Origin: Cornus controversa
Lineage: Eukaryota > Streptophyta > Magnoliopsida > Cornales > Cornaceae
Reading direction: 5' to 3'
DNA: 64,000 bases
NCBI GenBank assembly: GCA_026545225.1
Contig: CM048846.1
Location: 84,089,270-84,153,269 of the forward strand
Shown: in pieces, positions 2,901 to 60,103 of the stretch
Layout: each line of letters starts with the position of its first letter
Position numbering within the stretch: the stretch's first letter is position 1
Program-made: the position numbers and the translations under genes
The notes under the pieces: generated by a model
Seen by the model: only the letters and a program-made list of their open reading frames with translations
What the model was told of the DNA's origin: nothing
Database searches by the model: none

Positions 2901-2990
2901 TTACACAATAATTTTTTTAGACAATATATCAGATGATAGATTATCCATTTTTCATTATAACTACCCCTTGAGCCATTAGTTTACTTGTAC

Positions 2991-3240
2991 TGTAATACCC
3001 TGCTCCAACACATGGTATGATATTGTCCGCTTTGGGCCTAAGCCCGCACGGTTTTGCTCTTGGGTTTTACCCCAAAAAGCCTCATACTATTTGAAGAAAA
3101 CATACTACATATAAGCACATCCCCTTTTCCACACCGAGACGATATGGGATTGAGCACCCTGTACCCTGTCAATGTGGTAACTCAGCCCAGTGTCTGTCTT
3201 TGCACCCTCCCACTCACACCCGTCCACAAAAGTTACTACA
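2991..3240 (-). repeat. TRIM terminal repeat, left copy
   Basis: This is a 250-bp terminal repeat starting TGTAATACCCTGCTCC and ending GTTACTACA. It is homologous to 3311-3551 and to the solo copy at 58,599-58,850. A 78-codon open frame within it recurs in the other copies because of sequence homology, not because it is coding. Confidence 0.85.
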
Positions 3241-3310
3241 ATTCACCCCCCTACGAGGCCCGACGTCCTCGTCGGCACACTTCAGGCTAGGTTCAGGCTC
3301 TGATACCAAC

Positions 3311-3551
3311 TGTAATACCCCGCTCTAACACATGGTATGATATTATCTGTTTTGGGCCTAAGCACGCACGGTTTTGCTCTTGGGTTTTACCCCAAAAATC
3401 CTCATACCATTTGAAAAAAACATACTACATATAAACGCATCCCCTTTTCCACACCCAGGCGATGTGAGATTGAGCACCCTGTACCCGGTAACTCAGCCCA
3501 GTGTCTGTCTTTGCACCTGCCCACTCACACCCATCCACAAGGGTTACTACA
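3311..3551 (-). repeat. TRIM terminal repeat, right copy
   Basis: This 241-bp terminal repeat is about 10 bp shorter than its partner because it lacks 'ctgtcaatgt' after 'gtaccc'. It lies directly after the primer-binding-site sequence, so it is the 5' LTR of the minus-strand element. TGTAC follows it. Confidence 0.85.
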
Positions 3552-3746
3552 TGTACGCAATATACAACTAACTAAAATAGATTGAAGAAATCAATACAAG
3601 TTTATAAAAATTTATCAAAGTCTCTAATAGAAGTCTATACAAATTAATAAAAATATGTAATAGAAGTCTATAAAAATCCATGAATTCACATAAATCTATC
3701 TATTAAAAAATATTTTTCAAAATCCTAATTGACTACACCCTCCTAA

Positions 3747-28878: not shown

Positions 28879-29034
28879 GTTTTCTTCATGCTCCTTCATT
28901 TCCCTCTCTTGTACATATACTTACAAATTTACCGCTTCTTCCCATTACTTTGATAGGCTTAGAAATTTTACCAAGTCTCACGATAAGAAATTTGTGAGTT
29001 GTGTGGTGCGAAAGTGTCTAGGTTAATTTAATGT

Positions 29035-29460
29035 ATGATGTTATTCCTCATACTTAGAAGGGGTTAATAAGTCTTCTTGCTCAATTTTTATAATTAACTG
29101 ATTACCCACAAAATTAACCATTAAACTTCCAAACCAACTACAAAATAAATAAAGTAAGTAATTAAAGAAAGTTAAAAATCAAACCAGGAATTTTAAGTCA
29201 AAACCTTACGAGAGAAAACCACGGGAGGTTGTTGCCTCACATAAACAAATTCACTATCTCGAAAAAAAATACAACATACTCTGTCTCAATCTTACACTCA
29301 CTCCACTCTACCAAGAATTTGGTGTTGAATGCCCAGACTTACTCTTGCAATCCCTCGTTCAATTGTAGTAGACTTCATACTAATATCACAATCCTTGCAA
29401 AAGAGTTGCTAGAAGAACACGAAAGTTCCATGAACAATATGTCTTGCATCTAAGCCTTGT
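29035..29460. mobile_element. LTR-like fragment related to 1255-1730
   Basis: The order of motifs matches the block at 1255-1730: a 'gggttaataagtc..cttgctc' start, an 'aaaccacggg' segment, and a run containing 'cacaatccttgcaaaagagt' then 'tgctagaagaaca'. Both are diverged and lack clear ends. The 74-codon open frame here is not considered coding. Confidence 0.4.
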
Positions 29461-29623
29461 AAACCTTAGGTGCATCTCTTTCCTTTATTCAAGCTAAGTG
29501 ATCCTAATTCACTAGCCCTTCTCTAGCCATCGTTATTGTAGGCACCCTATTTTCCACCCTTTTTTTTAAGTACGTTTAAAAATTCAATTTCTTTCTCTCT
29601 CTTACAAATATACCTCACCCGCC

Positions 29624-29624
<1 letters not shown>

Positions 29625-29666
<42 letters not shown>

Positions 29667-31405
29667 ATTAAACATTCTCCATTGTTTTTATTCTTTGATC
29701 TCTCTCCCAGTCGAGAAAGTATACAATATCCGGAGTATTGATGATGTGGTGGTACCCCCAACCAATTTTACACCTAATGCCAACCTAGGTTAAGTTGCCT
29801 AATGCTTTAAGACACACACACACACTCTCTCTCTCTCTATTAAGACAACTTAAATGAATTTATATGTTCAATTAAGGCAACTTAAATGAATTGATATGTT
29901 TAAATTATCTCTCCACATCAATTGCATTAAAATTTAATATTCTTACTCTCAATTTAGTTGCCTCAATTGAGAGTGATAATTTCTCTTAGTTAACGTCAAC
30001 GGTCTTTTAACGCATCACAACATTAAGTTGCCTTGGGTTAGACTCTCTCTCTCTCTCTCTGTCAATTAAGGCAACTTGAATGAATTGATATACTCATATT
30101 CTCTCTCCACTATCAATTGCTTTAAATTTTCACTCTCAATTTAGTTGCCTCAATTGAGAATATGAACTTATCAAACTAAATTTAATATTCTTACTCTCAA
30201 TTTAGTTGCCTCAATTGAGAGTGATAATTTCTCTTAGTTAACGTCAACGGTCTTTTAACGCATCACAACATTAAGTTGCCTTGGGTTGGACTTTCTCTCT
30301 CTCTCTCAATTAAGGCAACTTGAATGAATTGATATACTCATATTCTCTCTCCACTATCAATTGCTTTAAATTTTCACTCTCAATTTAGTTGCCTCAATTG
30401 AGAATATGAACTTATCAAACTTTCAGATTCTCTTTCAACACACGCTATCTTTTGAATTTCAATAAACATTGTTATTGATATGGTTGATTTGAACATTTTT
30501 TATTGATCAAGAGAAATACATAATATGGTCGATTTAAATATTTTATTTTTTTTCTGTAAAGTCTTTTCAATTCATGATTTGAATATTTTTCGTCCTCTAG
30601 AAAATCTTCACTAAAAAATCTTCAAATGGACCATATCAGTAACAACATGGGTTGAAATTCAAATATAATGTGTGTTAAGAGGTAGTGTGAATGGAGAGAG
30701 AATTTGAAAGTCTGATATGTTCAGCTGCACCAAAGTGAGTTCTTCAGCACCATCAGGATATGTTGAAGTATACATATTTTGACGACTAAAAGTTGTTTTC
30801 ACCTAGGAGGATAAGTCACAACCTTTTTCTTCAAAAAACTCACTTCAATGTGTGTAGACTCCAATTTATGTACATCGTTGGAGTAGTACATTTTCTTTAT
30901 CTCACTTGGTTGTCACTACTCTTCAACAACAGGGAGACAAAATTTCATCCCAACAATGGTTGGTTGATGTGACGAGTTCATCCTACAACAGTTGGTTGCT
31001 TTGACGACATGGGAGCAACGAGTTCAATATTTGGTAAAACATACAACATTGCAAATATTGAGCTCATTGATCCCTCAATATTTGGTAAAACATACAACAT
31101 TACAAATATTGAGCTCATTTATCCCATATTGTCACAGCAGCCAACCATTGTAGGGATGGAAATTTTCTCTCCTGTCACAACAACCAATCAATGTTGGGAT
31201 GGAATTTTGCCTCCCTTATGTTCAAGAAATAGGATAACCAAGTGAAGACAAAGAGGACTATGTACTACTCTAATTATGAATAAAAATTGGACAACCAAGT
31301 GAGACAAAGAGTAAGATGTACTAAACCAATGATGAACATAAATTGGAGTCTCCACACACCGAAGTGAGTTTTTTTAATAAGGAGATTGTGACTTATCCTC
31401 CTAGG
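29625..31405. repeat. Foldback (inverted-repeat) element, left copy
   Basis: This copy is homologous in direct orientation to 36,830-38,299. It begins in (CT)n, then carries several opposing copies of a 'tcaattaaggcaactt / aagttgcctcaattga' module. It ends in a 600-bp hairpin-forming segment: 30,802-30,823 (CCTAGGAGGATAAGTCACAA and on) pairs with 31,384-31,405, and arms of about 270 bp can be aligned inward. The centre (31,025-31,130) holds two copies of a 52-bp unit starting 'caatatttggtaaaacatac'. The copy stops abruptly at 31,405, where degenerate copia sequence begins. No coding sequence is seen; a 78-codon frame at 31,009 is the 52-bp repeat translated. Confidence 0.6.
29931..30421. repeat. 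248-bp tandem duplication within the foldback element
   Basis: Copies at 29,931-30,178 and 30,179-30,421 are almost identical. They differ by a couple of substitutions and by the length of a (CT)n tract. The right-hand copy of the element (36,830-38,299) has this unit once, so the duplication post-dates the split of the two copies. Confidence 0.8.
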
Positions 31406-31597
31406 TTGGCGATGCCCCCAAACCCTGTGGCTTTGGTAGCTTAAGGCCACATAAGCCCATTTTTGGGTCAAAATTGGGTCGCAACGCGACCCGAGCCGAG
31501 ACAAAATTTGGGCCACAACATAACTTAAATCTCCACATTGCTAGAATTTCGTCAAGCTCTACAATCCCAACTACTCCTTCGCATGCCCCTAAAGGCC

Positions 31598-32354
31598 TCA
31601 ACAACTACAAACACCAATCAAGCCTAGATAATGTCTGAACTTGATTATAGGAATAACCTTAGTCATTATATCCGTCGGATTTTCTGTTGTTCCAATCTTC
31701 CTCACTGCAATAGCACTCTGTGCAATCACATCTCTGATGAAATGCAACCTGACATCAATATGCTTGGTCCTCTTATGGAATATCTGATTTTTAGTCAGAT
31801 GTATAGCACTCTGGCTATCACAAAACATAGTCAAATCATCCTGTTGCATTATATAACTTCCTTTATTTCCTCCGTAGCTGTTATGTACTTAACCTCTATA
31901 GTAGACAATGCAACTGTAACTTACAAAGTCAACTTTCAACTGATCACAGTCTCCCACAAAGAGTAAAGACATATCCGGTTAAGGATCTCCTCTTATCAAG
32001 ATCTCCAGTATAATCCAAATCAACATATCCAACAACACTCCCAGATGTATCGTTGTCTCTATCGTAGACTAATCCAACATCTACAGTTCCTCACAAGTAC
32101 CACAATATCCATTTCATAGCCTGCCAATGGACCTTCCCAGGTCTATTCATGTATTTTCTCACTACACTAATTGTATGTGAAATGTATAGCCTAGTGCACA
32201 TCATAGCATACATGATGTTACACACTGCACTAGCATAAGGAACACGAGACTTGTGATCCACCTTCTCCTTGGTCTTTGGTGACAATTCTGCCAAAAGTCT
32301 GAAGTGGGTGCCAATGGAGTTCTCATAAACTTTGATGCTTGCATACCGAAACAT
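31598..32354 (-). pseudogene. copia RNase H region, degenerate
   Basis: Two frame segments (32,091-32,354 and 31,598-31,849) show the end of a copia polyprotein. The second has the signature CDSQSAIHLTKN, then KRTKHIDVRLHFIRD, typical of the C-terminal RNase H of copia elements, and a tail with GTTENPTDIMTK. The first carries the preceding 'SRVPYASAVCNIMYAM' stretch (usually VPYASAVGSLMYAM). Stops separate them. Confidence 0.8.
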
Positions 32355-32379
32355 TCCAGCACTTTCTCAATGATTTCTT

Positions 32380-33250
32380 CTATGAAAAATACAATCTGCC
32401 CACTTCTCTTTCCCTATAAATCTCTATACTCAAAATCCTCTTCGCGGCACCTAAATCCTTCATCTCAAATTCACCACTAAGTTGAGCCTTCAACATGTTG
32501 ATTTCTGACATATTTCTACAAGCTAACATATTATCAACATCGAGCAAAAAGTACAAATATGAACCATTTAAGAGTCTCCTATGATCCACACAACTATCGA
32601 ACTCACTCCTATAGTAGCCACGTCCAACCATAAAGGTGTCAAATTGCTTGTACCATTGTCTAAGAGATTGCTTCAACCCATACAAAGATTTCTTTAGTAG
32701 GTAAACATGGTCTTCTTTTCCCATAATCTCAAACCCTCGGGCTGATGTATATAAATCTGTTATTCCAACTCTCTATGCAAGATCGCAGTCTTGACATCAA
32801 GTTGCTCAAGCTCTAAGTCATACAGAGCAACCATAGCAAGTAACACTTGGATTGAGCTATATTTCACAATAGGAGAGAAAACTTCATTAAAGTCCACCCA
32901 TTCCCTTTATGTATAGCCTTTCGCCACCAAGCGTGCATTGAACCTTGCATCTTCCACTCTTGGAGTTCTTTCTTTCTTCTTGAAGACCCATTTACTGCCC
33001 ACAATCTTCTAGCCCTTAGGCTTCTTGACTAGTTCTCAATTCTATTTTTTATGAAGAGACTCAATCTCCCCACTCATGGCAACAGACCACTGTGCTGACT
33101 TTTCACCTGTGATGGCCTCATGATAAGTACACGGTATCTAATCATCAATACTCTCTGCCATACTAGATGTATAAAAAATCGAATTAGCATATGAAAAGCC
33201 ATACTTTTGAGGTGGCTTTATATCCTTTCTCAGTCTGTCTCTAGCCATAC
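32380..33250 (-). pseudogene. copia reverse transcriptase, degenerate
   Basis: The segment 32,380-32,724 keeps the LLKKSLYGLKQS motif and a downstream EFEMKDLGAAKRIL motif. The catalytic box, normally YVDD, reads DVDN here, so one of the two catalytic aspartates is lost. Upstream to about 33,250 further RT-like sequence is broken by stops on all frames. It cannot encode an active enzyme. Confidence 0.8.
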
Positions 33251-35000
33251 TGTACCACTGCAACTGTGCATTTTCTTCCTCAACCTGAAACTGCACATAC
33301 TCATTATTCGACTACTCAAGAACACTTTTTAATTGAACCTCTGATAGCTCCACCTGCTCACTGACACCCTGAGCTGTAGCTGAATCAACTACCTCCTTTT
33401 GCAGGGTAAGCATCGCAAACTCATGAAATGTCACATCTTTGTTAACAAGTAATTTCTTTCCCGAAGCATCTGGGAACCACAAGTTGTATCCCTTAACCTC
33501 AGGCTCATAACCAAGGAATATGCACTTCTTAGCCCTCGGTTCAAGCTTTCCCTCATTGACATGAGCATGCGCAAGACACCCAAATATATATTCTCATATT
33601 ATTGTAACTAGCAGGAGAACCAAAACATACCTCCTCTGGTGTCTTATAGTCGATAGCAGTTAGGGGTGACAAAATTGGATACGATACGACAACACGACTC
33701 GAACTCGACACGAATTAAGCAAGTTTGGGTTTGAAGTAAGCCGACACGTTTAATAAATGGGTCGACACGAACACGACACGCAAAAATTGGATTGGATTTG
33801 GATTTAAGCTGTCTAACCCGTGACACGATTACGACACGATTACAACACGATTATAACATGAGTTATTCATATATTATGATTTTATATAAACTTATATATA
33901 CATAGTTATATAGGACACAAGTTATTCATATATACATGGTTTTATATTATAATTGTTTATAATCTATTTGTTTGTTTATAGGACTGATGTAGCCATAAAA
34001 CGCAAGGATGAGATTATTATGGTGTCTTCCAAGTTGTTGAATCACCTTAAAAGAGTTTATATATAGATACAAAATTTATAATATAGTTTGATTTTAGGAC
34101 TTATGTATTGATATGTACTTTATTTTTTATATGATCTTCAGAGAGATTTTTAGGGGTAGAGAAACTCATATGATATAAGTTAAACGGATTAAAAAAAGTT
34201 ATTGAATTAGTCGTGCCAATGTTTATTAAACGGGTTACACGGGTCGACACGACTAACACATTTAATAAACGGGTTGGGTTAGTGTTGAGGGTCTCTGACA
34301 CGATTATTAAATGGGTCGGGTTAGGGTTGAGTTGTTTAGTATAATACTTATAGATCGACACGACACGGGAACACAAATTGCCACCCCTAATAGTAGTCAA
34401 TGGAGACCAGTTCACCAAGAAACAAGTTATGAAAATAGCTTCAGCCCAGAACACTTTGTCTAACCCAGCATTGGACAACATACACCGTGTTCTCTCCAAT
34501 AATGTTCTGTTCACCTGTTCTGCAACTCCATTCTGCTGCAAATTTTTTCTTACTGTGCGGTGTCTCACAATCCCGTAAGTCTTGTAAAACTTATTAAATT
34601 CTCTATCACAGAACTCCAAACCGTTGTTTGTCTTCAAGCGTTTAACCTGTTTTCTAGTCTGCTTTTCAATTAAGGTCTTCTGCTGATTGAACGTAACAAA
34701 TGCCTCATTCTTGTGTTTCAGAATGTAAAGCCAAACCTTTTAAGAAAAATCATCAATCAAAGTCGTCATCATATATCTACCACCACCATGTGAATTACCC
34801 TAAGAAGGACCCCAAAGATCTGAATGGATATAATCCACTATGCACTTGGTCCTGTGAATTCTCGTCCTGAACTTCACTCTGCACTGTTTCCCAAAGACAC
34901 AACGCTCACAGAAATCCATCCTTCTAATTTTCTGACCACCGAGCAAACCCTACTTAATCAAAAAATCCATCCCCCTCTCACTCATATGCCCCAGCTACAT
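33100..35000 (-). pseudogene. copia integrase, degenerate and split by hAT insertion
   Basis: The segment 34,398-34,637 keeps the copia integrase core around the second and third catalytic positions. The usual TDNG motif reads TNNG (aspartate to asparagine), while the glutamate in NGVAEQ remains. The part beyond, including the 'YKTPEEV'-type segment, lies on the other side of the hAT element, below 33,660. Upstream toward 35,000, further integrase-like sequence is broken by stops. Confidence 0.75.
33661..34389. mobile_element. hAT-type non-autonomous element inserted in copia integrase
   Basis: The ends are TAGGGGTGACAAAATTGG (left) and, on the minus strand from 34,389, TAGGGGTGGCAATTTGTG. 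The flanks are ATAGCAGT (33,653-33,660) and ATAGTAGT (34,390-34,397), an 8-bp duplication with one change, which is the hAT size. The interior is dense in CGACACG/ACGACACG words near both ends and has no transposase. Removing it with one flank copy would rejoin the integrase reading frame, so it inserted into an already present copia element. Confidence 0.85.
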
Positions 35001-35434
35001 ATGCCACAACCTGGTAATATCTAAATTTGGATCTGAGGATGATACTACAGCTGAACCTGTAATTGTGCTACCCTGCAGAGCATACAAACCATGTTGTTTC
35101 AATCCCTTCATCACCACAAAAACACCCTTTGAAACCCTAATGACTCAACCTTCAACTTTGTAACTGCAGTCGATGGAATCCAATGTACCCTAGGAAATCA
35201 AATTCTTCTTCAGTTCTGGAACATGCCTGACATCAGTCAATGTTCTCACTATACCGTCAAATATCTTGATTCAAACTGTACCAATACCTACAACCTTGCA
35301 CGGCACATTATTTCCTATCAGAACTTCCCCTCTATCAATGGAACGATAAGAGGTAAACCAGTCCCGGTTAGGACAAACACGATACAAGCAACCCGAATCA
35401 AGTATTCACTCATCACTAGAGCCACGGACATAAA

Positions 35435-35668
35435 TTATGAGAATGCTACCACCATCTGAATCACTACCCTCTCCAACAGCCACCCCAGTGACTTCAAAGG
35501 ATTTTCCCTTTCCCTTCTTACGCTCGGACAATCTTTCCTGAAATGCCCTTCCTTGTGACAGGTGAAGCATTTCAGCACTTTCGATTTGTTCTTAGACTTA
35601 GAATAACCTCTGTTGTCAGACCCTCTCTTATGATTCGTTCCCCCTCTAACAACCAAGCCCTCTGCCAA
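35435..35668 (-). pseudogene. copia gag zinc knuckle
   Basis: This contains one CCHC knuckle, [14 protein letters not shown] (C-X2-C-X4-H-X4-C), preceded by a basic Lys/Ser/Arg-rich stretch, as in the nucleocapsid part of copia Gag. The frame is open for 77 codons only. Confidence 0.8.
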
Positions 35669-35707
35669 ACTTTACGTATTGCCCTTAAACATCCTTCTCA
35701 GCAACTC

Positions 35708-36240
35708 CTAAGAATTTAAAGATGTTTTCACATCTTCCATAAACCAATTAGTTCTGCCATACATCATCGTATCAACAAAGTTCCCGTACAAAGGTGGTAG
35801 AGAGCACAAAAGAATAATAGGCTGATCCTCATCCTCTATTTCAACATCAATATACTTCAAATCCAAGATGGCAGCATTAACCTTGTTAAAGTGGTCTTTC
35901 AGAGACGAACCTTTCTGCATTTGAAGAGTGAACAACCGCTTCTTTAGGAACAAGAGACTTCGTCATATAACGGGATTCCAACTTGCTCCACAACCCATCC
36001 GCCGTAGTCTCTCCAAAAATATCTCACAAAACCTCGTTACTCGAACACAACAGAATTACATTGTGTGCTTTCTTCATAGCCTCATCTTTCGGATCATCCT
36101 TTCACTTTTTTGGCAATGCATCATTTCCCTTCAGTGCCTTGGATATCCCATGTTGAACCAACAGGGCTTACATCCTAACTAGCCACAGGTTGAAGTCATT
36201 CACGCCATTAAACTTCTCAATTTTCATAAACTTGGTCGAC
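35708..36240 (-). pseudogene. copia gag N-terminal part
   Basis: The 81-codon segment at 35,708-35,953 is typical of plant copia Gag: a '[20 protein letters not shown]' stretch, and '[13 protein letters not shown]' further on. The region from 35,953 up to the primer-binding site at 36,261 should hold the N-terminus but is interrupted. Confidence 0.7.
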
Positions 36241-36275
36241 ATCCCAGCTTAGAACTGAAAGCTCTGATACCACTT

Positions 36276-36785
36276 TGTTGTGAAAAATAACTGCGAATCA
36301 AGCACAATCACGAAACACGACACAAAACGAAACAAGCACAACACACAGAACACAAGAATTTAGGTAGTTTAGCGATGTGCCTACGTCCTCGACGAAGATC
36401 CAGTGAAAGTTTTTATTATGCAAAAATAATGAGATTATAAATTTTAACCTCAAACCCTAGCTCTCGCTCTAATTTGTTATGAAAAATAGTCACGAACCAA
36501 GTATAATCACAAAACACGACACAAAATGAAATAAGCACAGCACACAAAATATAAGAATTTATGTAGTTCAGCGATATGCCTACGTCCACAGTGAGATATA
36601 GTAAAAGTTTTCACTGTGAGAAAATAAGGAGATTACAAGTTTCATCCCCAAATCCTAGCTCTCTCACTATCTTTTGCATTTTTAGTATTTTTTCTCGTTA
36701 CTCACTCCAAACCCTTAGATATCCTTATATATTGGGCTACAAGAAAGTCATAATTGGGGTCCAAAACCAGCAAGCGAAAAATAGG
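36276..36785 (-). mobile_element. copia LTR with a 199-bp doubled head
   Basis: The LTR starts TGTTGTGAAAAATAACTGCG right beside the primer-binding site. A second, about 80% similar start, TGTTATGAAAAATAGTCACG, lies at 36,475. Both are followed by 'aacacgacacaaaa', then 'agaattta(g/t)gtagtt(t/c)agcga' and 'tgcctacgtcc'. So either the LTR head was duplicated or two related LTRs are abutted. The outer LTR end is unclear. It is probably lost near the T8G13 run at 36,793-36,813. Confidence 0.6.
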
Positions 36786-36829
36786 TCATAAATTTTTTTT
36801 GGGGGGGGGGGGGTGGTGCCACCTACCCT

Positions 36830-38299
36830 CATCTCTCTTTCTCTCTCCTCATTAAACATTCTCTATTGTTTTTATTCTTCAATCTCTCTCCCCCAGTTGA
36901 GAAAGTATACAATTCTCGGGGTATTGATGATGTGGTGGTACACCCAGCTAGTTTTACACCTAATGCCAACCCAGGTTAAGTTGTTTATTGCTTTAAGACA
37001 CACTCTATCTATATTAAGACAACTTAAATGAATTTATATGTTCAATTAAGGCAACTTAAATGAATTGATATGTTCAAATTATCTCTCCACATCAATTGCA
37101 CTAAAATTTAATATTCTCTCTCAATTTAGTTGCCTCAAATGAGAGTGATAATTTCTCTTAATTAACGCCAATGATTTCTTAACGCATCACAACATTAAGT
37201 TGCCTTGCGTTAGACTCTCTCTCTCAGTTAAGGCAACTTGAATGAATTGATATGCTCATATTCTCTCTCCACTATCAATTACTTTAAAATTTCACATTTT
37301 CACTCTCAATTTAGTTGCCTCAATTGAGAATATTAACTTATCAAACTCTCAGATTCTCTCTCAACGCACGCTATCTTTTGAATTTCAACAAACGTTGTTA
37401 TTGATATGGTCAATTTGAAGATGTTTTTATTGATAAAGAGAAATACATAATATGGTCGATTTAAAGATTTTCTTTTTTTTTGTAAAGCCTTTTCAATTCA
37501 TGATTTGAATCTTCTTCGCCCTCTAGAAAATCTTCACTAAAAAATCTTCAAATGGACCATATCAATAACAACATGGGTTGAAATTCAAAAGATAATGTGT
37601 GTTGAGAGGTAGTGTGTGTGGAGAGAGAATTTGAAAGTTTGATATGTTCAGTTGTACCAAAATGGGTTCTTTAACATCATTAGGATATGTTGAAGTGTGC
37701 ATATTTTGATAACTAAAAGTCATTTTCACCTAGAAGGATAAGTCAACCTCCTTCTTCAAAAAAGTCACTTCGGTGTGTGGAGACTCCAATTTATGTACAT
37801 CGTTGGAGTAGTACATCTTCTCTATTTTACTTGGTTATCACTACTCTTGAATAACAGGAAAAGAAAATTTCATCCCAACAATAGTTAGTTGATGTGACAA
37901 GTTTATCCTACAACGGTTGGTTGTTTTGATGACATGGGAGCAACGAGTTCAATATTTAGTAAAACATACAACATTGCAAATATTGAGCTCATTGATCCCT
38001 CAATATTTGGTAAAATATACAGCATTACAAATATTGAGCTCATTTATCCCATATTGTCATGGTAGCCAGCGTGTAGGGATGAAAATTTTCTCTCCTGTCA
38101 CAACAACCAATCACTGTCGGAATAAAATTTTGCCTCCCTGCTGTTTAAGAAATAGGACAGCCAAGTGAGACAAAAAGGAAGACGTACTACTCCAATTATG
38201 AACATAAATTGGACAACCAAGTGAGACAAAGAGTAAGATGTACTAAACCAACAATGAACATAAATCGGAGTCTCCATTCGCAAAAGTAAATTTTTTAAA
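36830..38299. repeat. Foldback element, right copy (direct repeat of 29,625-31,377)
   Basis: The same order of parts as the left copy is present, including the opposing 'aaggcaactt' modules, the 'gatatggt(c/t)gattt' segment, the 52-bp central unit in two copies, and the end at 'ggagtctcca'. It lacks the 248-bp duplication. Similarity is high throughout, with scattered substitutions and small indels. Confidence 0.7.
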
Positions 38300-38399
38300 C
38301 ATAAAGAAGTAAGTTAGGACTTGTCAAGATCTACTACTCAAACAATGAACATAAATTGTAGCCTCCACCCACAAAAGTGAATTTTGTGTACATAAGAAA

Positions 38400-38690
38400 C
38401 AAGGTAGGACTTATTTGCCTTGATGGAAGTGGCTTTTAGTTCTCAAAATATGCCTACTTCAGCAAATTTTGATGCTACAAGACCCATGTGGTGCAGCTGA
38501 ATGTATCAGACTTTCATATTCTCTCATAACATAGTTATTGATACGGTGGATTTGAAGATTTTTCATTGAACAAGAGAAATACCTGATATGGTAGATTTGA
38601 AGTTTTTTTTTTTCAATCCATGATTTGAATTTTGTTCGTCCTCCTTTAATAAATCTTATCAAGCATATGAAGTTGCATGATAGTGGTTCA
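38400..38690. repeat. Inverted and direct pieces of the foldback element
   Basis: 38,405-38,540 is the reverse complement of the left copy's 30,665-30,800 segment: it contains 'tggtgcagctgaatgtatca', and the left copy has 'tgatatgttcagctgcacca'. 38,541-38,660 is again in direct orientation, matching about 30,475-30,610. This adds a further arm beyond the direct repeat and supports a large composite palindrome. Confidence 0.55.
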
Positions 38691-38729
38691 GGTCCAAGAG
38701 CTGTTTATAGTTTTTAATACCACAGTATG

Positions 38730-39112
38730 TCTTCCAACAATGGCTTTGAAAATTGATTTGAGGAAGGCTTATGATTCAGGGTCTTGGCCCTTTCCTTTTC
38801 AACCTTCTCTCTTCTTATGAATTTGGTACCAAATTGAATTAAAGACTTGATTTTCAATTATAATAAATGGATCCCCTCTTTCTATTGAGACGAGGGTGTC
38901 CTCTTTTTCTCCTCTTCTTTTCACCTTGGTTATTTCTAACCTGTTGCAGCAAGAAGTTTTGATGGGCAAATTTTATTTGGCTCATTATGTTGGTCAATCT
39001 GAATTTGTCACATTATTTCTATGCTGATGACTTGATTATTGTGGCTACTGCAGATGTTGTTAGTTCAAGCAAGGCTATTGTGGAGGGCGTTGCTCAGATT
39101 CAACTGCCATAA
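38730..39112 (+). pseudogene. LINE (non-LTR retrotransposon) reverse transcriptase fragment
   Basis: Read on the plus strand with frameshifts, this shows the order of plant LINE RT motifs: ALKIDLRKAYDS, then a degraded QGCPLSP-like stretch ('rgcpl', about 38,893), then FYADDLIIVATA with the catalytic YADD (about 39,015-39,055). Both ends are truncated. It is a dead fragment embedded in the foldback region. Confidence 0.75.
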
Positions 39113-39136
39113 TTGAGGGTGAGAGTATAAACATAT

Positions 39137-39826
39137 TGTTAAGAAACAAGCCTCCAATCACTTACCACCAAGTATTACGACGTGATGATAAGTAATCAAG
39201 CACAAAAAAAATTTCAAGAACACACCAAGAATTATATGTGGTTCAGCTAAACAAGCCTACGTCCACGAAGAGTGTGATTTTACTATATAGATTGTAACAG
39301 TATAAGTTGAAGAATTGTATCAAGAGTACACTCAACTCTCAACCCTTATACACTAAATCTCACTCAAAGGGAAATCACAAATTCTAAACAAAACTTCTCT
39401 CTCTAAGTGTCCTCTCAATAATAATAAAAATATTATCTCTACGCAAGAGTTGCCCTCTCAAAACAATGGGAGTGACTTCTCAAATACAATAAGAGTATTC
39501 CATCTTAACTTTTCATTTATCTCAACCTATAACTGAAGTAACTATTTATAGAGCTCAAAACTCAATTCCTTGGTGGGCAAGGATTACAATTCCTTAGAGC
39601 CCAAAACTCAATTTCTTGGTGGACAACGATTACAAGGATTACAATTTCATAGATCCCCAAACTCAATTCCTTAGTGGACAAGGATTACAATTCCTTAGAG
39701 CCATAGATTTATCTAATAAGAACTTTACTTCTTTGAGACCAAGACATGTCTACTAAAAAATTACATAATAATATACAACTATATAATAGAAACCTAATCA
39801 CAATTAGAATTTGAGCGAACCTAACA
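39137..39826 (-). mobile_element. Solo LTR, copia type
   Basis: It starts TGTTAAGAAACAAGCC and ends GAACCTAACA. It contains 'gtggttcagctaaacaagcctacgtccac', in two blocks homologous to the LTR at 36,276 and the solo LTR at 4107, and a run of '(c)aaggattacaattcctta' repeats with a 'tatttataga' segment around 39,543. There is no internal domain on either side. Target duplication is not evident (catat / caaat). Confidence 0.6.
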
Positions 39827-39829
39827 CAA

Positions 39830-39920
39830 ATTAATTCATTTCAAGTTGTCTTAATTGAGAGAGAGAGAGAGAGAGAATGTGTGTATTAACGCATTAGGCA
39901 AATACTATCATTTATTGCTG
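39830..39920. repeat. Inverted terminal piece of the foldback element
   Basis: This piece reads 'ttaattcatttcaagttgtc', then (GA)n, then 'gtgtattaacgcattaggca'. The reverse complement matches 29,795-29,865 and 37,000-37,050 (attaagacaacttaaatgaa) with the adjoining (CT)n and 'taatgctttaagacac'. It lies 2.9 kb from the matching left arm of the right copy and may mark its far end. Confidence 0.5.
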
Positions 39921-40766
39921 GAGAGTGACCATTAGAGGCAACCTCCATCAAATGAGGTTGTGCGCCCAGTGAAGAAAATAAGGACAGTTAAATTGGTTCT
40001 ACTGTTTTTACATCTACACTAGCTTAGTCCTTTTATATATTGTGTTTTGAACATCTGTATTACCTTTCGTTTGCTGTTTTTGAATTGGAGTTGATGAACA
40101 GACATCTAAGATTTGCTGCTTCATTCTCTATTATTTATGACATCAAATTGCATAACCTTCTTCAAGACAAATTTAACACCACACAAATGTCACAGGGAAC
40201 CTTGCTTTGTACCAGCAATACATATCGGAATTTAAGAGTAACCTTTATGCAAAATAATATCAAAGATTAAATCTAGCTTCGAACATACTCGATTTAATAT
40301 TTCTTTACCTGCAGAGTTCCAGACTCGTATACGTTCAGCATATCCATTTCACATCAGCCATATTCAGGTCACAGGAACAAAACTAACAAAAAGTATAGAG
40401 TATTCTTCCATAAAGTCGTTTTAGTTCTAGTGGAGAGAGTGCAGAAGAGAGAATATTAGTATCAGAGAGAGAGACAGAGATTAAAATTTATTCTAAGAAA
40501 TAACACATGAAATGCAGGCCATAGCACCAATCACAAGTGAGACAAACAAAACGATACTTGAATAACAGGCAAGCAAAGCAAATTGAGGCAAAATGTCAAA
40601 AGGCCAACCAAAACTCAGAAACTAGTAAACTGATTGTTCTTTGGTTTGCCTTATGCATGAAAGAAGAGGTATAGAAGATTGCAATAGCCTTTTCATGCGA
40701 TTTTCATTATTGGAAAAAGAAAACGTTACATTACAATGATCATTACTTTGTTGGAATATAGTATCA
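39921..40766. other. Intergenic, nothing recognised
   Basis: AT-rich sequence with a short (GA)n run near 40,467. No supported gene. A possible terminal exon on the minus strand starts at its right edge (see next). Confidence 0.4.
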
Positions 40767-43700
40767 CTATTCATCGCCATTAAATGGCCTCTCAAACAAG
40801 CCAAATTGTATTGACATTCCGCTCCCATCAACAACTGCTAGCATTCTATATACATGAACAAAGAGCTTTCACAAGCAGATAAACAAGAAACAAATTCTGA
40901 TATCATTCTAAATATCATCACTAAACATTAGGACATATGAAATGCAAGTTCAAATGAATCATACAAGAGATGGCCACTCAGTTTCCATATCCAACTACTT
41001 GCAACTTCGAAAAACCCTTTCTTGAAGAGCATGAAAAGATTACTAACATCTTAAATCTCATTCAAAGCAGCTTTGAATTTCTGATAAAGTCAAAGTACAA
41101 AAATAATATAATTGGTTGTTATTATAGAACAAGTATTTTTCAAAAATATGAATAACATTCTGATTAATGGGAAAACTTAATTTGAATTCCTTCCAAAAAC
41201 ACACACTAACCAAGAGTATATAGAGAATAAAGAACTCACAAAAATATGGGAAAACTTAGGCGAACAAGCCGAAGAAATTCAATAATTGTTGATTCTTCTA
41301 CATAGCACAAAAGGAAAATATTCTAAAGAAATTCAGCAAACAGCCAAGACTCAAAATTTCTTCCAAGAATAAGCATGAGATTGAACATCCCTTGTTCTCA
41401 GAACTATCATTAAACAAAACCTCCCAAGTGGTTCACATAGTACACCAGTACAAGCCACAGATAGTTCCCAGCAAGGAAGAGAGTTTAAATATGACTTTAT
41501 GACTTTCCTTACCAGATCTTCATACTCGTATTCCTATGAGTAATGTACATGAAGATCAATCTAACAAGTACAGAAATCTTCACAACCTCATACAACTTCC
41601 TTTTCAATCCAGTTTTCAATTCCTTTTCAGGTCATAAAAGTTCTTCCAAAATTCTCTCATATCTCCACCACAAACATGGAATTTCAAGAAATGCACATGG
41701 ATAAGGAGTAATCTAGCCCAAAATAACATATTATTATCAGTCTTAGTATGTCAAGAAAAGAGGTCTATGGTAATCCTTGAGCAGTAATTGATTAAGAGCA
41801 TTGAATGAAACTACATTTTGACAAGAAAATAAATTTATTAGAAGATAAGATATTTGAGGAAGAGGGGCTTTTTTCAAAATGAAAATACAGGTTATTACGA
41901 ACTATTGAGGGTTTATTAAGGTCTTCAAAAACATTTACAGAAGTTACCAAACATATAGAAGTCAATAAAGCATAATGACATTTGTCAGACAAAATATTCT
42001 AAAGTAGAAACAATGCTTTCCTCACATACCAAGAGAGATCATGTGTCACAAGTCCATTGTATGCAACTACAACATCAGGACAAATCAGTTCTGGGCAAAC
42101 TAGAAACTTAAAAAAAGAAAATTTCAGGACAACCTCATATATACGCTCTCTTTCTCCTGGTACTCATTCATGCCGCGCTTAAGTTTTTACAGAGTTTCTC
42201 CATTGCTCCACTATGTAACATGAACTCGGGTATGAGTATAAAGGCTTTTGCATGTTACATATATCCTCTTCTAATCCTTACAGGAAATGGGGACATTGGT
42301 TAAAGCCATCACCAATTTTTCTTCTCTTAAAAGCAAAAATGAAGATTCTATGCAGAGGTGCCTATCGAAACTTCTACTGAACTAGGTTCTATTTCTTCAT
42401 TGGACATTTTTTTGTTTGATAAGTGTTCAACAACAGAAGAATTGGATGCACATCCTACAATTTTATGGGCAGTTGGATCAGACTCGGTGAATCCTGTCAA
42501 GGATAGGTGATCATGTATTGCACGGATCGACTCACGTAGAGCTCTGATTGCATTGATTAATCAAATTTTGGTTCAGTTTGCCTTATTTTATGCTTATTTT
42601 AGGTTATTATGTCAAGTACTAAGTAGTAATATAAGTCCAACAGTCTAGATTGATTTTTGATAACGTGAGAAGCATTGTGTTATGCAACATTACTTTAAGG
42701 ATAATTTTTAAGAAAATATACATGAGAATGCTCCATTTTCATTGATATGCATTAATTGTTATTCTATTCAACCCAAAAAATCCAACTTTGACAAACCGAA
42801 TCCTCTCCTCTTAAATATTCTGCCCTGCCACACATCCCCCCACCCACCCCACCCCACCCAACCACCAAACAAACATTCTCTCACACAAAAAGAGGACCAT
42901 ACCATCCATGACAACCCTAGAATAATCCCTAGATCATTCTGAAAACCTTACACCATACAGTTCAAATCAACACCAACCATTTAACCTACCCTTTGGCCTT
43001 AAATTTAAAAGAGGACCATCCATGACAATCCTAGAATAATCCCTAGATCATTCGGAAAACCTTACACCATGCAGTTCAAATCAACCCCATCCATTTAACC
43101 TATCCTTTGGCCTTAAATTTAAAAGAGGACCATCCATGACAACCTTGAAACCTAGAATAATCCCTAGATCATTCTGAAAACATCAACCCCAACCATTGAA
43201 CCTATCCCATGGCCTCAAATTAACGCCAAAACACAATATTTAGTCGCTACACAAAATGTTTGAGAACTGATTGTGATTCCAGTAAGTAACTAATCACTTC
43301 TTTCTAAACAAGTCAATCTCAACCCTTTTACGTCTGCCAAGCCTTCAACCATCCTTTTTAAAATCCTAAACCAAAAAGTTCTTTTATAACCTTCACCCAC
43401 CAGAGAATCGACCCCAAGCAGCACCGCAGCATCCCTCCAATTTTCATGCAAGTAGTTCTATATCACAAATTGCACATCAAAACATCTCACTCTTTACTGT
43501 TGCATTCTTTAGTCTTCACAACACAATGACCAACCATCTTAAACAATGTTCCCTCATTTTATCCTTAATTGGTGCACCAATAGCTGCTCACAGGCATATT
43601 TGTTTCTCATTCTATTATTTATTGCATTGCCCACCTGTAAATCTTAGCATCCTCATTTTGACTACTATGACTGGAAAGTTTGTTTGAACATGCATTCAAT

Positions 43701-45920
43701 TTGGGGGTTAATATTTCTGAATTAAATTATATTGCCTTTATAATTACTTACCAATTATAAATAGATTAAGCCCCAATTTATCACTTTAAACAAAAACAAT
43801 CAATTAACTAATTAATCAATTGTTTTCCATTCAACAACCATGAGAAAATAAGTATGCAAAACCACCAAAAATTAGTAAATGCACAAACAACTTTTACATG
43901 GAAACCCCAAACAAGAAAAAATAGTCCACTAAAAAAAAAGGGTACAACATTAGGTTCCAGACTCTTACAATGTGGTAAATTTATTTAGCTACAATCCAAA
44001 CTTTTGGCAGACCCTTTTTCTCAACAAAATCTGTAGCCGTCAATCTATAAATCTGTCTCAACGTGATAAACCTTTGCTAGTATTGTTCAAACGCTCTCAT
44101 TTTTTTATTACTATTAACAATATATATATGGTTTCACAGATTCCTGAACAATCAAATAGAAAATTAAAATATTTTCTCATTAGCTTTTCCTATTATTTCG
44201 TTCACTTTATCCCATCACCCAACAATGCATACAAGGAAGAGAAAAAGGAATGCCCATAAAGCAAACTTCCTTTCATGTTTTCCACAAGATATTTTATACA
44301 GATAAATCTATTACAGAGCTTTTTTTACCCCTTTTTTTGACTTTTCTCACTACTGTGTCCCTTTCAAGTAAATGAAGATGAATTGAAAAATATATAAATA
44401 TATAGATGTATCAAGAAACGAAATTATGAAAATATACAAGGATTATACAATTTCCTGTGTGTAAATGAAGATGAATTGAAAAATATATAAATATATAGAT
44501 GTATCAAGAAACGAAATTATGAAAATATACAAGGATTATACAATTTCCTATGTGTAAATGAAGATGAATTGAAAAATATATAAATATATAGATATATCAA
44601 GAAACGAAATTATGAAAATATACAAGGATTATACAATTTCCTATGTCATTAAGCTATCTCTTCTGCTAGGACCCACTGCATGCCCAGAACTTTGTTCAGC
44701 AACTAGTAGCTACTGTTGTTAATAATAGTAAATTCTTTTTTTGACAAGTACTAATAATAGTAAATTCTCATACCTACCACAGTAAACTTCACGAAGTGAA
44801 GCTATGTACATAATCGCAAGTGAGGTCCACAAAAAATCATTTCAAAACTGAATTGAAATTGATTCAGGCATGAGGTAGCTAAAAAGGAAGGGTTTATTCA
44901 GGTGCCTAGAAAATCATTAGAACCATCCCCTTGCTAACAAGGGGGGAAAAAACAGTTGCAAATCCCAGGCTTTTATGAAGGATTCGAGAATCCTGCAAAC
45001 AGTAAGATTTCAAATTCTATAGTGATTCTGACATATCATGGCTTGCACAAAAAGAACATGGTCACTTAACAAAATTACAGGATTTGTGAATCCCATGAAA
45101 AGACGACAGTACTGAAATGGGGAAAAAACGATATAAGATGTACAACAAAGAACCAAGAAAGAAAACAGAAGGTGAGTCAAGAGAAGCAAACAAAAGAAAT
45201 CTACACCACAGTAACTATACGCACCTCCAACTTGTCAACCAAAAACTCACCCACTATTATTTGAATCTCTTTCTGAATCAACAAAGCAAAATGAACAAGG
45301 ACATTTTTTCAAAGGCCTTAGCATCCAAGTTCTACTTGACCAAATATTCACAAGGAACCTAAAAGAAAGAGCATGCATGACCCATGCTATCCCAGGCCTT
45401 CTAAGAACTCAAATCAAATTGACAAAGTTATTGTCTGCAAAACAAAAGGAACTTTATACAGAATCAAAACTTTTAATGCACAATAAATATTTCTTAAAAA
45501 AAATTAGTGAACATGCAAGTCAATAAATTTGCACTAGAAATTTCCAACAATGAAATCATGCTAACAAGGGGGCAAACAGAAAAATAAATAAATAAATAAT
45601 GATACGATGACGATGACGATGACGATGACGATAGAATGAAAAAGAAAAAGTGAAAAAAACAAAATAAGCAGTAAGTTGAACTAGCAAAACACAGCAGGCC
45701 AAGTCAAAAAACAACTGATATTGCAGGGAAAAAAGCAGTTTCAGTTCCACTGCTGAAATAATCAGATACTGACATGATTAACAAACATGAATAGAAAAAC
45801 CCAGTTGTAAGAAAATTCAACAATTAGTTTATGAACAAAAGAGCCAATGTACTGACCTGATTTAGTATCTAAATCACACAGCAGGAGCAAGAGCGAAAGC
45901 AAGAACGGGAGAGATAGCAT
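40767..45920 (-). CDS. Tentative intron-rich gene on the minus strand, unresolved
   Basis: Several short open pieces on the minus strand are bounded by AG acceptors and GT donors. 45,857-45,920 is ATG plus 21 codons beginning MLSLPFLLSLLLLL, a signal-peptide-like start, with donor GTCAGT. 45,225-45,272 (KEIQIIVGEFLVDKLE) has acceptor ATTCAG and donor GTGCGT. 42,030-42,099 contains PELICPDVVVAYNGLVTHDL and has donor GTATGT. 41,513-41,533 is EYEYEDL with donor GTAAGG. 40,767-40,845 ends FGLFERPFNGDE then TAG. The strand is T-rich between them, as plant introns are. I could not assemble a continuous phase-consistent gene and do not recognise the protein. Each piece alone could be chance. Confidence 0.2.
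42284..42576 (+). pseudogene. Gene fragment with frameshift and stop, unrecognised
   Basis: After an AG at 42,283 the plus strand reads EMGTLVKAITNFSSLKSKNE. A one-base frame change near 42,353 leads into EVPIETSTELGSISSLDIFL. The frame continues with acidic, polar sequence (TTEELDAHPTILWAVGSDSV) to a TGA at about 42,510, after which the same frame goes on with ARIDSRRALIALINQIL. This coherent amphipathic composition over about 95 codons, across two lesions, suggests a decayed exon or retrocopy. The family is not recognised. Confidence 0.35.
42838..42880. repeat. C/A-rich simple sequence
   Basis: A '(cccac)n'-like tract, 'ccccccacccaccccacccc' and neighbours, is followed by the tandem array below. 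Confidence 0.7.
42896..43225. repeat. Three-copy ~115-bp tandem repeat
   Basis: Units start near 42,900, 43,014 and 43,129. Each contains 'atccatgacaa(c/t)cct', 'tagaataatccctagatcat' and 'ggcctta/ggcctca'. The third copy has a small insertion after 'gacaacct' and a deletion in the middle, so it is the most diverged. No coding potential. Confidence 0.8.
43230..44367. other. Intergenic, one coding-looking stretch
   Basis: Mostly AT-rich. On the minus strand 43,300-43,463 is open for about 55 codons, beginning NYLHENWRDAAVLLGVDSLV after a 'tatag' acceptor-like site and ending LTCLERSD then TAG. The composition is protein-like but no family is recognised. It sits just beside the 115-bp array. 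Confidence 0.25.
44368..44646. repeat. Three-copy 93-bp tandem repeat, nearly identical
   Basis: Copies start at 44,368, 44,461 and 44,554. The unit begins 'gtaaatgaagatgaattgaa' and ends 'caatttcctatgt'. Only one or two substitutions (gtgt/atgt, gatgtat/gatatat) separate the copies, so the array is recent and may vary in copy number. Confidence 0.9.
45599..45634. repeat. (GATGAC)n hexanucleotide microsatellite
   Basis: About five 'gatgac' units follow an (aaat)n run (45,582-45,598). It is in the presumed intron between the first two minus-strand exon candidates. Confidence 0.8.
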
Positions 45921-58598: not shown

Positions 58599-58850
58599 TG
58601 TAATACCCCGCTCCAACACATGGTATGATATTGTCCGCTTTGGGCCATAACCCGCACGGTTTTGCTCTTGGGTTTTACCTCAAAAGGCCTCATACCATTT
58701 GAAGAAAACATACTACATATAAGCACATCCCCTTTTCCACACCCAGGCGATGTGGGATTGAGCACCCTGTACCCTGTCAGTGTGGTAACTCAGCCCAGTG
58801 TCTGTCTATGCACCCGCCCACTCACACCCGTCCACAAAGGTTACTACATT
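58599..58850 (-). mobile_element. Solo LTR of the TRIM family at 2991
   Basis: This is a 252-bp copy, TGTAATACCCCGCTCC to GGTTACTACA, closely matching both LTRs at 2991-3551. The flanks ctttg (58,594-58,598) and ttttg (58,851-58,855) differ at one position, consistent with an aged 5-bp duplication and loss of one LTR by recombination. Strand follows the 2991 copy. Confidence 0.85.
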
Positions 58851-60103
58851 TTGAATCAAGTAAGTGTGAGGTTTAAGTATGAACAAGTTTTGATCCTTGA
58901 GGACAATACCACTACTACTACACTACATGATCTATCCTATTGTGAGTAGTGACTAGTGCTAGTAAAGAGGTTATTATAAATTTTTAAAGTTGAAAAAGTA
59001 CAAGCTAGTTGCAAGGTGTCACGCCCCGACTCCAGAGTCCTAAGAACCGGGGTGTGAACTCCGTGAGATCACCCTCACGACATAACCATCACCTGATCAT
59101 ACAATCTCAATTTTCTATTATTTTTTTTAAAAAAAAGGGCATCACCCCTTCTGAATAAATCAAATCCTGATATGTCATTCACTCTGTAAATTCAAAATGG
59201 ACACTTCTGGGTGTGTCCCCCCAACATTCACATCCTAAATTCAAAATGGACACTTCTAAGCACGTGTCCCCCCAGTATTCCTACAACATGCATATTACAA
59301 TTGAAATAATAACTCAGTCCCTGAATGTTCATCTCATATACATACATCAAATGTACAAATGGGAGAAACTGCCCAACATAAAAGTCCAATACATTTAATC
59401 CAAATGTAAAACATCAATCAATGTCCTAGACATACATTAAATTCTAAAGAATTTAATTACCACCTCTGCATACGGTACTATCGATCCCCCCTAACTCACT
59501 CTATAATCAACGATACCTGCAAAACCTGGGAGGGGGTGAGCTCAAAGGCCCAACAAGGTATGTCGAACCATACTATCACTGCTACAGCAGGTCGATCGTC
59601 ACATATTCTCAAAAACATACACATTTAAATATATCATAATATTTAAATCATGTTTCACCTAGCATACATGAACCAACAATGCATATGGTAATTCTAGCAC
59701 ATATGAACATATAAGCCAACTACACAGGATTTTTGAAATCATTTTCAATATGCTTGAAAGTAGAAAACATCCAGCACCAATATGTATAAAGAACATATAT
59801 GTCTATTTACATAAAATAATGTAAATCAATCATCACGTCCCCTACTCGACAAGTAGCTATCTCAAATGCAATGAAAATGCATTTAAACCATACAACATGC
59901 TCAAAAGCAATAGACATCCAACATATATCATGTTCCGTCACAAGTAACGCATATATAAGAATGTGTTAAACACATAGCATGCTTCACAATAGATAATGTA
60001 AGCAAGTTCACACACTTGTCTCTCTCTCGGACTCAACCCGATACCCTAACATGATTCTCAACCAATCATGTGATCGAGACACTTCTCACACAATTTTAGA
60101 ATT

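What the first reader, a model, noticed from the sequence alone, without database searches (positions are those of the whole stretch)
29625..39920. Composite giant foldback element in two direct copies around a gutted copia element
Seen: 29,625-31,377 and 36,830-38,299 are direct repeats. Each contains opposing modules of 'aaggcaactt' and ends in a 600-bp hairpin-forming segment. Inverted pieces of the same element lie at 38,405-38,540 and 39,830-39,920. The copia internal region sits exactly between the direct copies, and its missing 3' LTR is replaced by the hairpin arm at 31,405. Known foldback elements have long modular inverted arms, and this matches in style. Inference: an undescribed foldback family, or a rearrangement in which ectopic recombination joined two copies across a copia insertion.
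Basis: partly seen in the sequence, partly recalled or inferred. Interest (0 to 1): 0.75.

Follow-up and report, generated by a model that had tools for sequence, protein, structure and literature searches.

The report
Hairpin repeat duplicated around dead retrotransposon
In a plant chromosome a rare self-complementary stretch of DNA stands twice, on either side of a decayed retrotransposon, most likely through an old local rearrangement, and the evidence does not make it a new mobile element.

Summary
The repeats are real. Copy A (29,626-31,406) and copy B (36,827-38,656) are direct repeats, about 88-91% identical, each with a long hairpin, and a decayed minus-strand copia lies between them. 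Searches of the 772-Mb genome do not support a foldback family. The hairpin core was found at three places only: A, B and one locus on C7 (3 of 3 candidates scored). C7 shares neither limit of A or B. The outer inverted piece (39,826-39,905) belongs to another repeat, Fam-X, seen at ten further loci and running on in the window to 41,691. The copia 3' LTR is not wholly missing: about 119 bp remain at 31,407-31,525. Both copia LTRs break at nearly the same position, where 20 of 24 comparable LTR copies also lack bases. Best reading, inferred: copia inserted in one rare hairpin locus, and an unequal exchange with a copia-free chromosome duplicated the hairpin. A bolder rival, a hairpin carried inside the copia LTR, remains open.

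The parts
29000..29444 (.). High-copy repeat left of copy A
   Evidence: 1,782 first-look candidates, 40 scored; the 39 matches other than the window are 74-77% and end at 29,383-29,444. Nothing can be said of 29,445-29,625 from this call, because copy B, which matches 29,648-29,720, is itself missing from the 40 scored
29626..31406 (+). Copy A of the hairpin repeat: TC-rich edge, about 160 bp of leader, opposing modules, palindrome; stops in its right arm
29788..29868 (+). 81-bp outermost module, also found (inverted relative to the window's Fam-X) in ten Fam-X loci and C7
30801..31406 (+). 606-bp hairpin of copy A
31407..31525 (-). Remnant of the copia 3' LTR (its first part); left edge uncertain by a few bases (AGG/T shared by both sides)
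31526..36275 (-). Copia internal region, broken: gag, zinc knuckle, integrase piece, SH3-like piece, reverse transcriptase piece; longest open frame 212 aa
   Evidence: Retrotran_gag_2 5.8e-15, zf-CCHC 1e-5, SH3_retrovirus 5e-18, RVT_2 1.4e-18; rve 0.0039 is below its curated cut-off
36276..36826 (-). Copia 5' LTR, its first part missing, with a tandem duplication (36,260-36,471 / 36,459-36,669, 78%); primer-site motif next to it recalled, not searched
   Evidence: outer edge in a G-run is uncertain
36827..38656 (+). Copy B of the hairpin repeat; arms 37,539-37,819 and 38,326-38,609
38657..39137 (+). Fam-X fragment with a broken LINE-like reverse-transcriptase stretch (named by eye; the one piece searched, 38,851-39,024, had no Pfam hit)
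39138..39820 (.). LTR-like insertion within Fam-X, shared with C7, absent from the ten other Fam-X loci; five bases at its edges nearly match (by eye)
39821..40808 (+). Fam-X continued; contains the inverted piece 39,826-39,905 of the finding
41110..41691 (+). Fam-X continued (92% to L072)

Best explanation
A rearranged nest of repeats, not a foldback transposon. SHOWN: a rare imperfect palindrome with a leader of short opposing modules stands as two direct copies around a decayed copia; both copia LTRs are cut at nearly one position; copy B runs unbroken where copy A stops. INFERRED order: (1) there was one hairpin locus, joined on its right to a Fam-X copy holding an LTR-like insertion; (2) a copia inserted on the minus strand in the hairpin's right arm; (3) its left LTR lost its outer part, leaving about 119 bp against the arm; (4) an unequal, microhomology-type exchange joined the same position of the right LTR to the TC-rich edge of the hairpin on a copia-free sister or homologous chromosome. 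A is then the half left of the insertion and B the unbroken locus of the other chromosome. The hairpin may act passively as a fragile site and, if transcribed, as a source of double-stranded RNA; neither was tested.
For: The hairpin core has three places, 3 of 3 candidates scored, so two independent arrivals in the same orientation on both sides of one copia are unlikely. B is continuous with C7 through the point where A stops, as an empty site would be. A-B homology begins in a TC tract and its first 160 bp or so lie outside the outermost module. At the LTR break, 20 of 24 comparable copies lack 7-72 bp relative to L050, 16 of these with at most 10 unmatched bases between the two matched pieces (the 29 copies fetched are the best of 40 scored of 2,115 candidates, and 5 of 29 had no match beyond the break). 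The copia LTR is at most 85% identical to the other 39 scored copies while A-B are about 90%, which fits copia first, duplication later.
Against: Two separate breaks at nearly one LTR position are needed; the deletion-prone site helps but does not prove it. The position on the right is ambiguous: a direct test of overlap between the two LTR pieces was not significant (109 of 500 shuffles as good). A-B identity is uneven (93-95% in the modules, 87-91% in the hairpin, 88% at the left edge), which one duplication does not predict. In the hairpin A-B (88.9%) is no closer than A-C7 (88.6%) or B-C7 (89.7%), so a local A-B duplication younger than the split from C7 is not visible there. The copia-free allele is assumed.
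Confidence: 0.48

Rival explanations
1. The hairpin sat inside the LTR of a copia. Extrachromosomal copia DNA (linear cDNA or a one-LTR circle) carrying it recombined by homology with a resident hairpin locus, giving resident/carried hairpin, LTR start, internal region, LTR rest, carried/resident hairpin.
For: Both LTRs are cut at nearly one position and each abuts the hairpin. A and B begin at the same edge. The sequences left of A and right of B showed no significant LTR match (65 and 57 of 500 shuffles as good), as expected if the outer halves are resident. A-B, A-C7 and B-C7 are about equally distant in the hairpin, as three independent copies would be. PMC11899658 (passages) cites integrase-independent integration into existing elements in yeast and describes one-LTR circles.
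Against: No other hairpin-bearing LTR was found. It needs a right-truncated hairpin in an LTR, then mobilisation, then recombination. Many copies of this LTR lack bases at the same place without any hairpin, which weakens the coincidence.
Confidence: 0.2
2. A real but nearly extinct foldback or Mutator-like family: A, B, C7 and the C6 palindrome are eroded members that have lost their ends.
For: Modular inverted arms in A and B; a distantly similar 3.85-kb palindrome on C6 with arms 84-86% alike; the 81-bp module recurs at ten other loci.
Against: Three places for the core; C7 shares neither limit with A or B; no target duplication seen; in C6 the outer arm, query 1-603, matches other loci widely while the inner part matched only C6 and B among 40 of 60 candidates scored; the outer right piece is Fam-X sequence.
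Confidence: 0.2
3. Assembly error: the second copy is a false duplication.
For: Repeats and homopolymers lie at both junctions (G-run at about 36,800, TC tract at 29,628-29,663).
Against: A and B differ at 134 of about 1,460 bases plus a 244-bp unit, far more than a false duplication would show. No read data could be examined.
Confidence: 0.04

Closest known systems
Foldback elements (Drosophila FB4 and Galileo, nematode Tm1, Arabidopsis FARE)
   Same: Long, internally repetitive, modular inverted arms; foldback arms are described as hotspots of ectopic recombination (passages of PMC3169594, PMC3573991, PMC2955051; FARE only as cited there).
   Different: C7 shares no limit with A or B, no target duplication seen, three places in the genome for the core, and the arms do not bound the unit.
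Mutator-like elements with multiple terminal inverted repeats (PMC3310237; abstract and introduction read)
   Same: Repeated copies of a terminal-like module next to each other; an 81-bp module shared with another repeat.
   Different: No 9-11 bp target duplication and no bounded element seen; no transposase shown.
Plant Ty1/copia retrotransposon
   Same: gag, zinc knuckle, integrase, reverse transcriptase in copia order on the minus strand; high-copy LTR.
   Different: Both LTRs are cut and hairpin copies stand on the outer sides.
Tandem or recombined LTR-retrotransposon structures in plants (PMC11899658; passages)
   Same: Rearrangement through recombination involving LTRs.
   Different: Here the duplicated unit is an unrelated hairpin repeat, not the LTR or the internal region.

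Membership tests
Foldback transposon | Long modular inverted arms that bound the element | tested here: inconclusive
   Inverted arms exist, but the outer right piece is Fam-X sequence
Foldback transposon | Copies with shared ends at different loci | tested here: not met
   The only other locus of the core, C7, runs from 37,690 to just past 39,908, sharing neither limit of A or B
Foldback transposon | Target site duplication (9 bp in Tm1) | tested here: inconclusive
   None seen by eye at A, B and C7; scripted scan for C6 only
Foldback transposon | Transposase in full-length members | tested here: inconclusive
   Only two hairpin frames (30,973-31,242 and 37,893-38,165) were searched in Pfam: none and only sub-cut-off hits
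Mutator-like element | Long terminal inverted repeats with 9-11 bp target duplication | tested here: inconclusive
   81-bp module recurs at ten loci, but there it lies inside Fam-X; no self-inverted partner within 3.08 kb of L064
Ty1/copia retrotransposon (the element between A and B) | gag, integrase, reverse transcriptase in copia order | tested here: met
   Pfam hits in that order on the minus strand; integrase piece below its curated cut-off
Ty1/copia retrotransposon (the element between A and B) | Two complete LTRs and target duplication | tested here: not met
   Each LTR keeps one part only

The most novel reading that the evidence does not exclude
A copia retrotransposon carried a hairpin repeat inside its LTR and entered a resident hairpin locus by homologous recombination of its extrachromosomal DNA, without integrase, leaving the hairpin as a direct duplication around the element.
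Probability: 0.18. Interest if true: 0.5.

Novelty: new member of a known kind. Interest (0 to 1): 0.22.

Why it matters
It shows how a nest of old repeats can look like a new mobile element: counting copies in the same genome and reading other LTR and Fam-X copies dissolve the apparent outer arm and the missing LTR. If the bold rival were true, the locus would record integrase-free entry of a plant copia through a passenger repeat.

Tried and rejected
Rejected: (a) 39,826-39,905 as the right terminal repeat of the unit: it first looked so because C7 seemed to stop there, but ten Fam-X loci carry on through it and C7 itself matches Fam-X some 34 bp further. (b) The hairpin simply present in both LTRs of this very copia: no significant LTR match left of A or right of B. 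(c) C7 as a partner from whole-genome duplication: matches of the whole window in 28.5 kb around it lie at scattered, non-collinear window places; genes were not traced one by one. (d) C6 as a full-length member. (e) C5 and C1 hits: short pieces of other sequence. Dead ends: exact patterns in viral contigs and prokaryote genome contigs gave 0, Rfam and tRNA scans of the window gave 0, and the FARE paper is not held.
Full report
WHAT IS THERE. The window lies at C2:84,089,270-84,153,269 of a 771.7-Mb genome in 61 contigs. It reads like plant nuclear DNA: stop-to-stop frames look by eye like an ABC-transporter gene at about 13.6-24.7 kb and an inositol-phosphate kinase-like gene at 51.3-52.4 kb (names recalled, not searched). 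Copy A and copy B are direct repeats. Without one extra tandem unit of A they differ at 134 of about 1,460 aligned bases, 105 transitions and 29 transversions.

ANATOMY OF THE REPEAT. From the left it has a TC-rich edge, about 160 bp of leader, short modules with AAGGCAACTT in both orientations, and a long imperfect palindrome. In A the palindrome is 606 bp (folding z -25 against 20 shuffles). In B it is larger: 37,539-37,819 pairs with 38,326-38,609 at 68% in a local alignment and 78% of paired bases in a gapped one. A stops at 31,406; B and C7 continue.

COPY NUMBER. The query B (36,830-38,299) found A, B, C7 and weak pieces on C5 and C1, 6 of 6 candidates scored. The hairpin core 30,860-31,300 found A, B and C7 only, 3 of 3. 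The mid arm 30,432-30,810 found A, B, C7 and a 67-bp piece on C6, 6 of 6. The right arm 38,300-38,690 found A, B, C7 and C6, 7 of 7. The tool skips very common words and calls its counts lower bounds. C6 holds a separate palindrome with arms 46,870,953-46,872,244 and 46,873,387-46,874,801, 84-86% alike in the two longest matches. Parts of its inner arm resemble ours; its outer 600 bp match other loci (40 of 60 candidates scored) and overlap a LINE-like frame (by eye).

THE OUTER PIECE IS ANOTHER REPEAT. The query 29,690-30,430 gave 18 rows, 17 of 17 candidates scored: A, B, C7, two further rows inside the window, three short hits, and ten loci matching 29,788-29,868 at 82-87%. Compared from three of them (L064, L066, L072), the ten are about 90-98% identical where they align. 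Six (L064, L066-L069, L071) align over nearly all 3.08 kb, L072 and L073 in two blocks, L063 and L065 in smaller pieces. All ten also match the window at 38,657-38,804, 38,874-39,068 and from 39,821 on, eight of them to about 40,808; L064 and L072 match 41,110-41,691 as well. I call this family Fam-X; its full length and type are unknown, because larger stretches could not be fetched. The LTR-like stretch 39,138-39,820 is absent from all ten and present in C7. C7 matches B over 37,690-39,908 at 87%.

THE COPIA. On the minus strand it holds gag, zinc knuckle, integrase, SH3-like and reverse transcriptase pieces with no long frame. Its 5' LTR belongs to a high-copy family: 2,115 candidates, 40 scored, 29 besides the window fetched. 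In 24 of the 29 the LTR goes on with sequence matching window 31,408-31,540; in 5 no such match was found. So the window's two LTR pieces together make one LTR of about 450 bp. Only 4 of the 24 are undeleted at the join relative to L050; 20 lack 7-72 bp. The two window pieces meet or overlap by roughly 5-55 bp by my reading, depending on how the G-run is aligned. A direct overlap test was not significant.

MECHANISM. The account I find least contrived is a copia insertion into one hairpin locus, loss of the outer left LTR at the deletion-prone place, and an unequal exchange joining the same place in the right LTR to the TC edge of the hairpin on a copia-free chromosome. It explains why B is unbroken where A is cut, why A-B homology includes leader outside the modules, why its left limit lies in a microsatellite, and why no ends or target duplications are seen. 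All these steps are inferred. Against it stand the need for two breaks at nearly one place, uneven A-B identity, and the nearly equal distances of A, B and C7 in the hairpin (88.9, 88.6 and 89.7%). The main rival, a hairpin carried in the LTR and brought in by homologous recombination, explains the shared break and the equal distances directly but needs unseen intermediates. Both remain open.

KNOWN KINDS. It looks like foldback elements, which have modular inverted arms and are described as recombination hotspots (passages of PMC3169594, PMC3573991 and PMC2955051). It does not meet their test of shared ends at different loci. Literature searches were made; of papers not named here only search listings were seen. 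I make no claim that this repeat is absent from print.

Noticed in passing
LTR family of window 36,474-36,806 plus 31,408-31,525: A G/C-rich stretch of this high-copy LTR is missing, by varying lengths, in 20 of 24 comparable copies: a recurrent deletion site.
   Followed up: partly
L026 (C6:46,870,953-46,874,801): A separate palindrome whose outer arms match sequence repeated elsewhere and whose inner arms resemble parts of this hairpin, with extra internal modules on one side.
   Followed up: partly
38,657-41,691 and loci L063-L073: Fam-X, a family of unknown type with at least ten loci about 90-98% alike; the window copy is older and interrupted.
   Followed up: partly
36,260-36,471 and 36,459-36,669: Tandem duplication, 78% alike, across the edge of the copia LTR and its primer-site region.
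   Followed up: no
2,989-3,243, 3,309-3,552 and 58,599-58,851: A repeat of about 250 bp in three copies, 88-94% alike.
   Followed up: no
44,368-44,646: Three tandem copies of a 93-bp unit, 98-99% alike.
   Followed up: no
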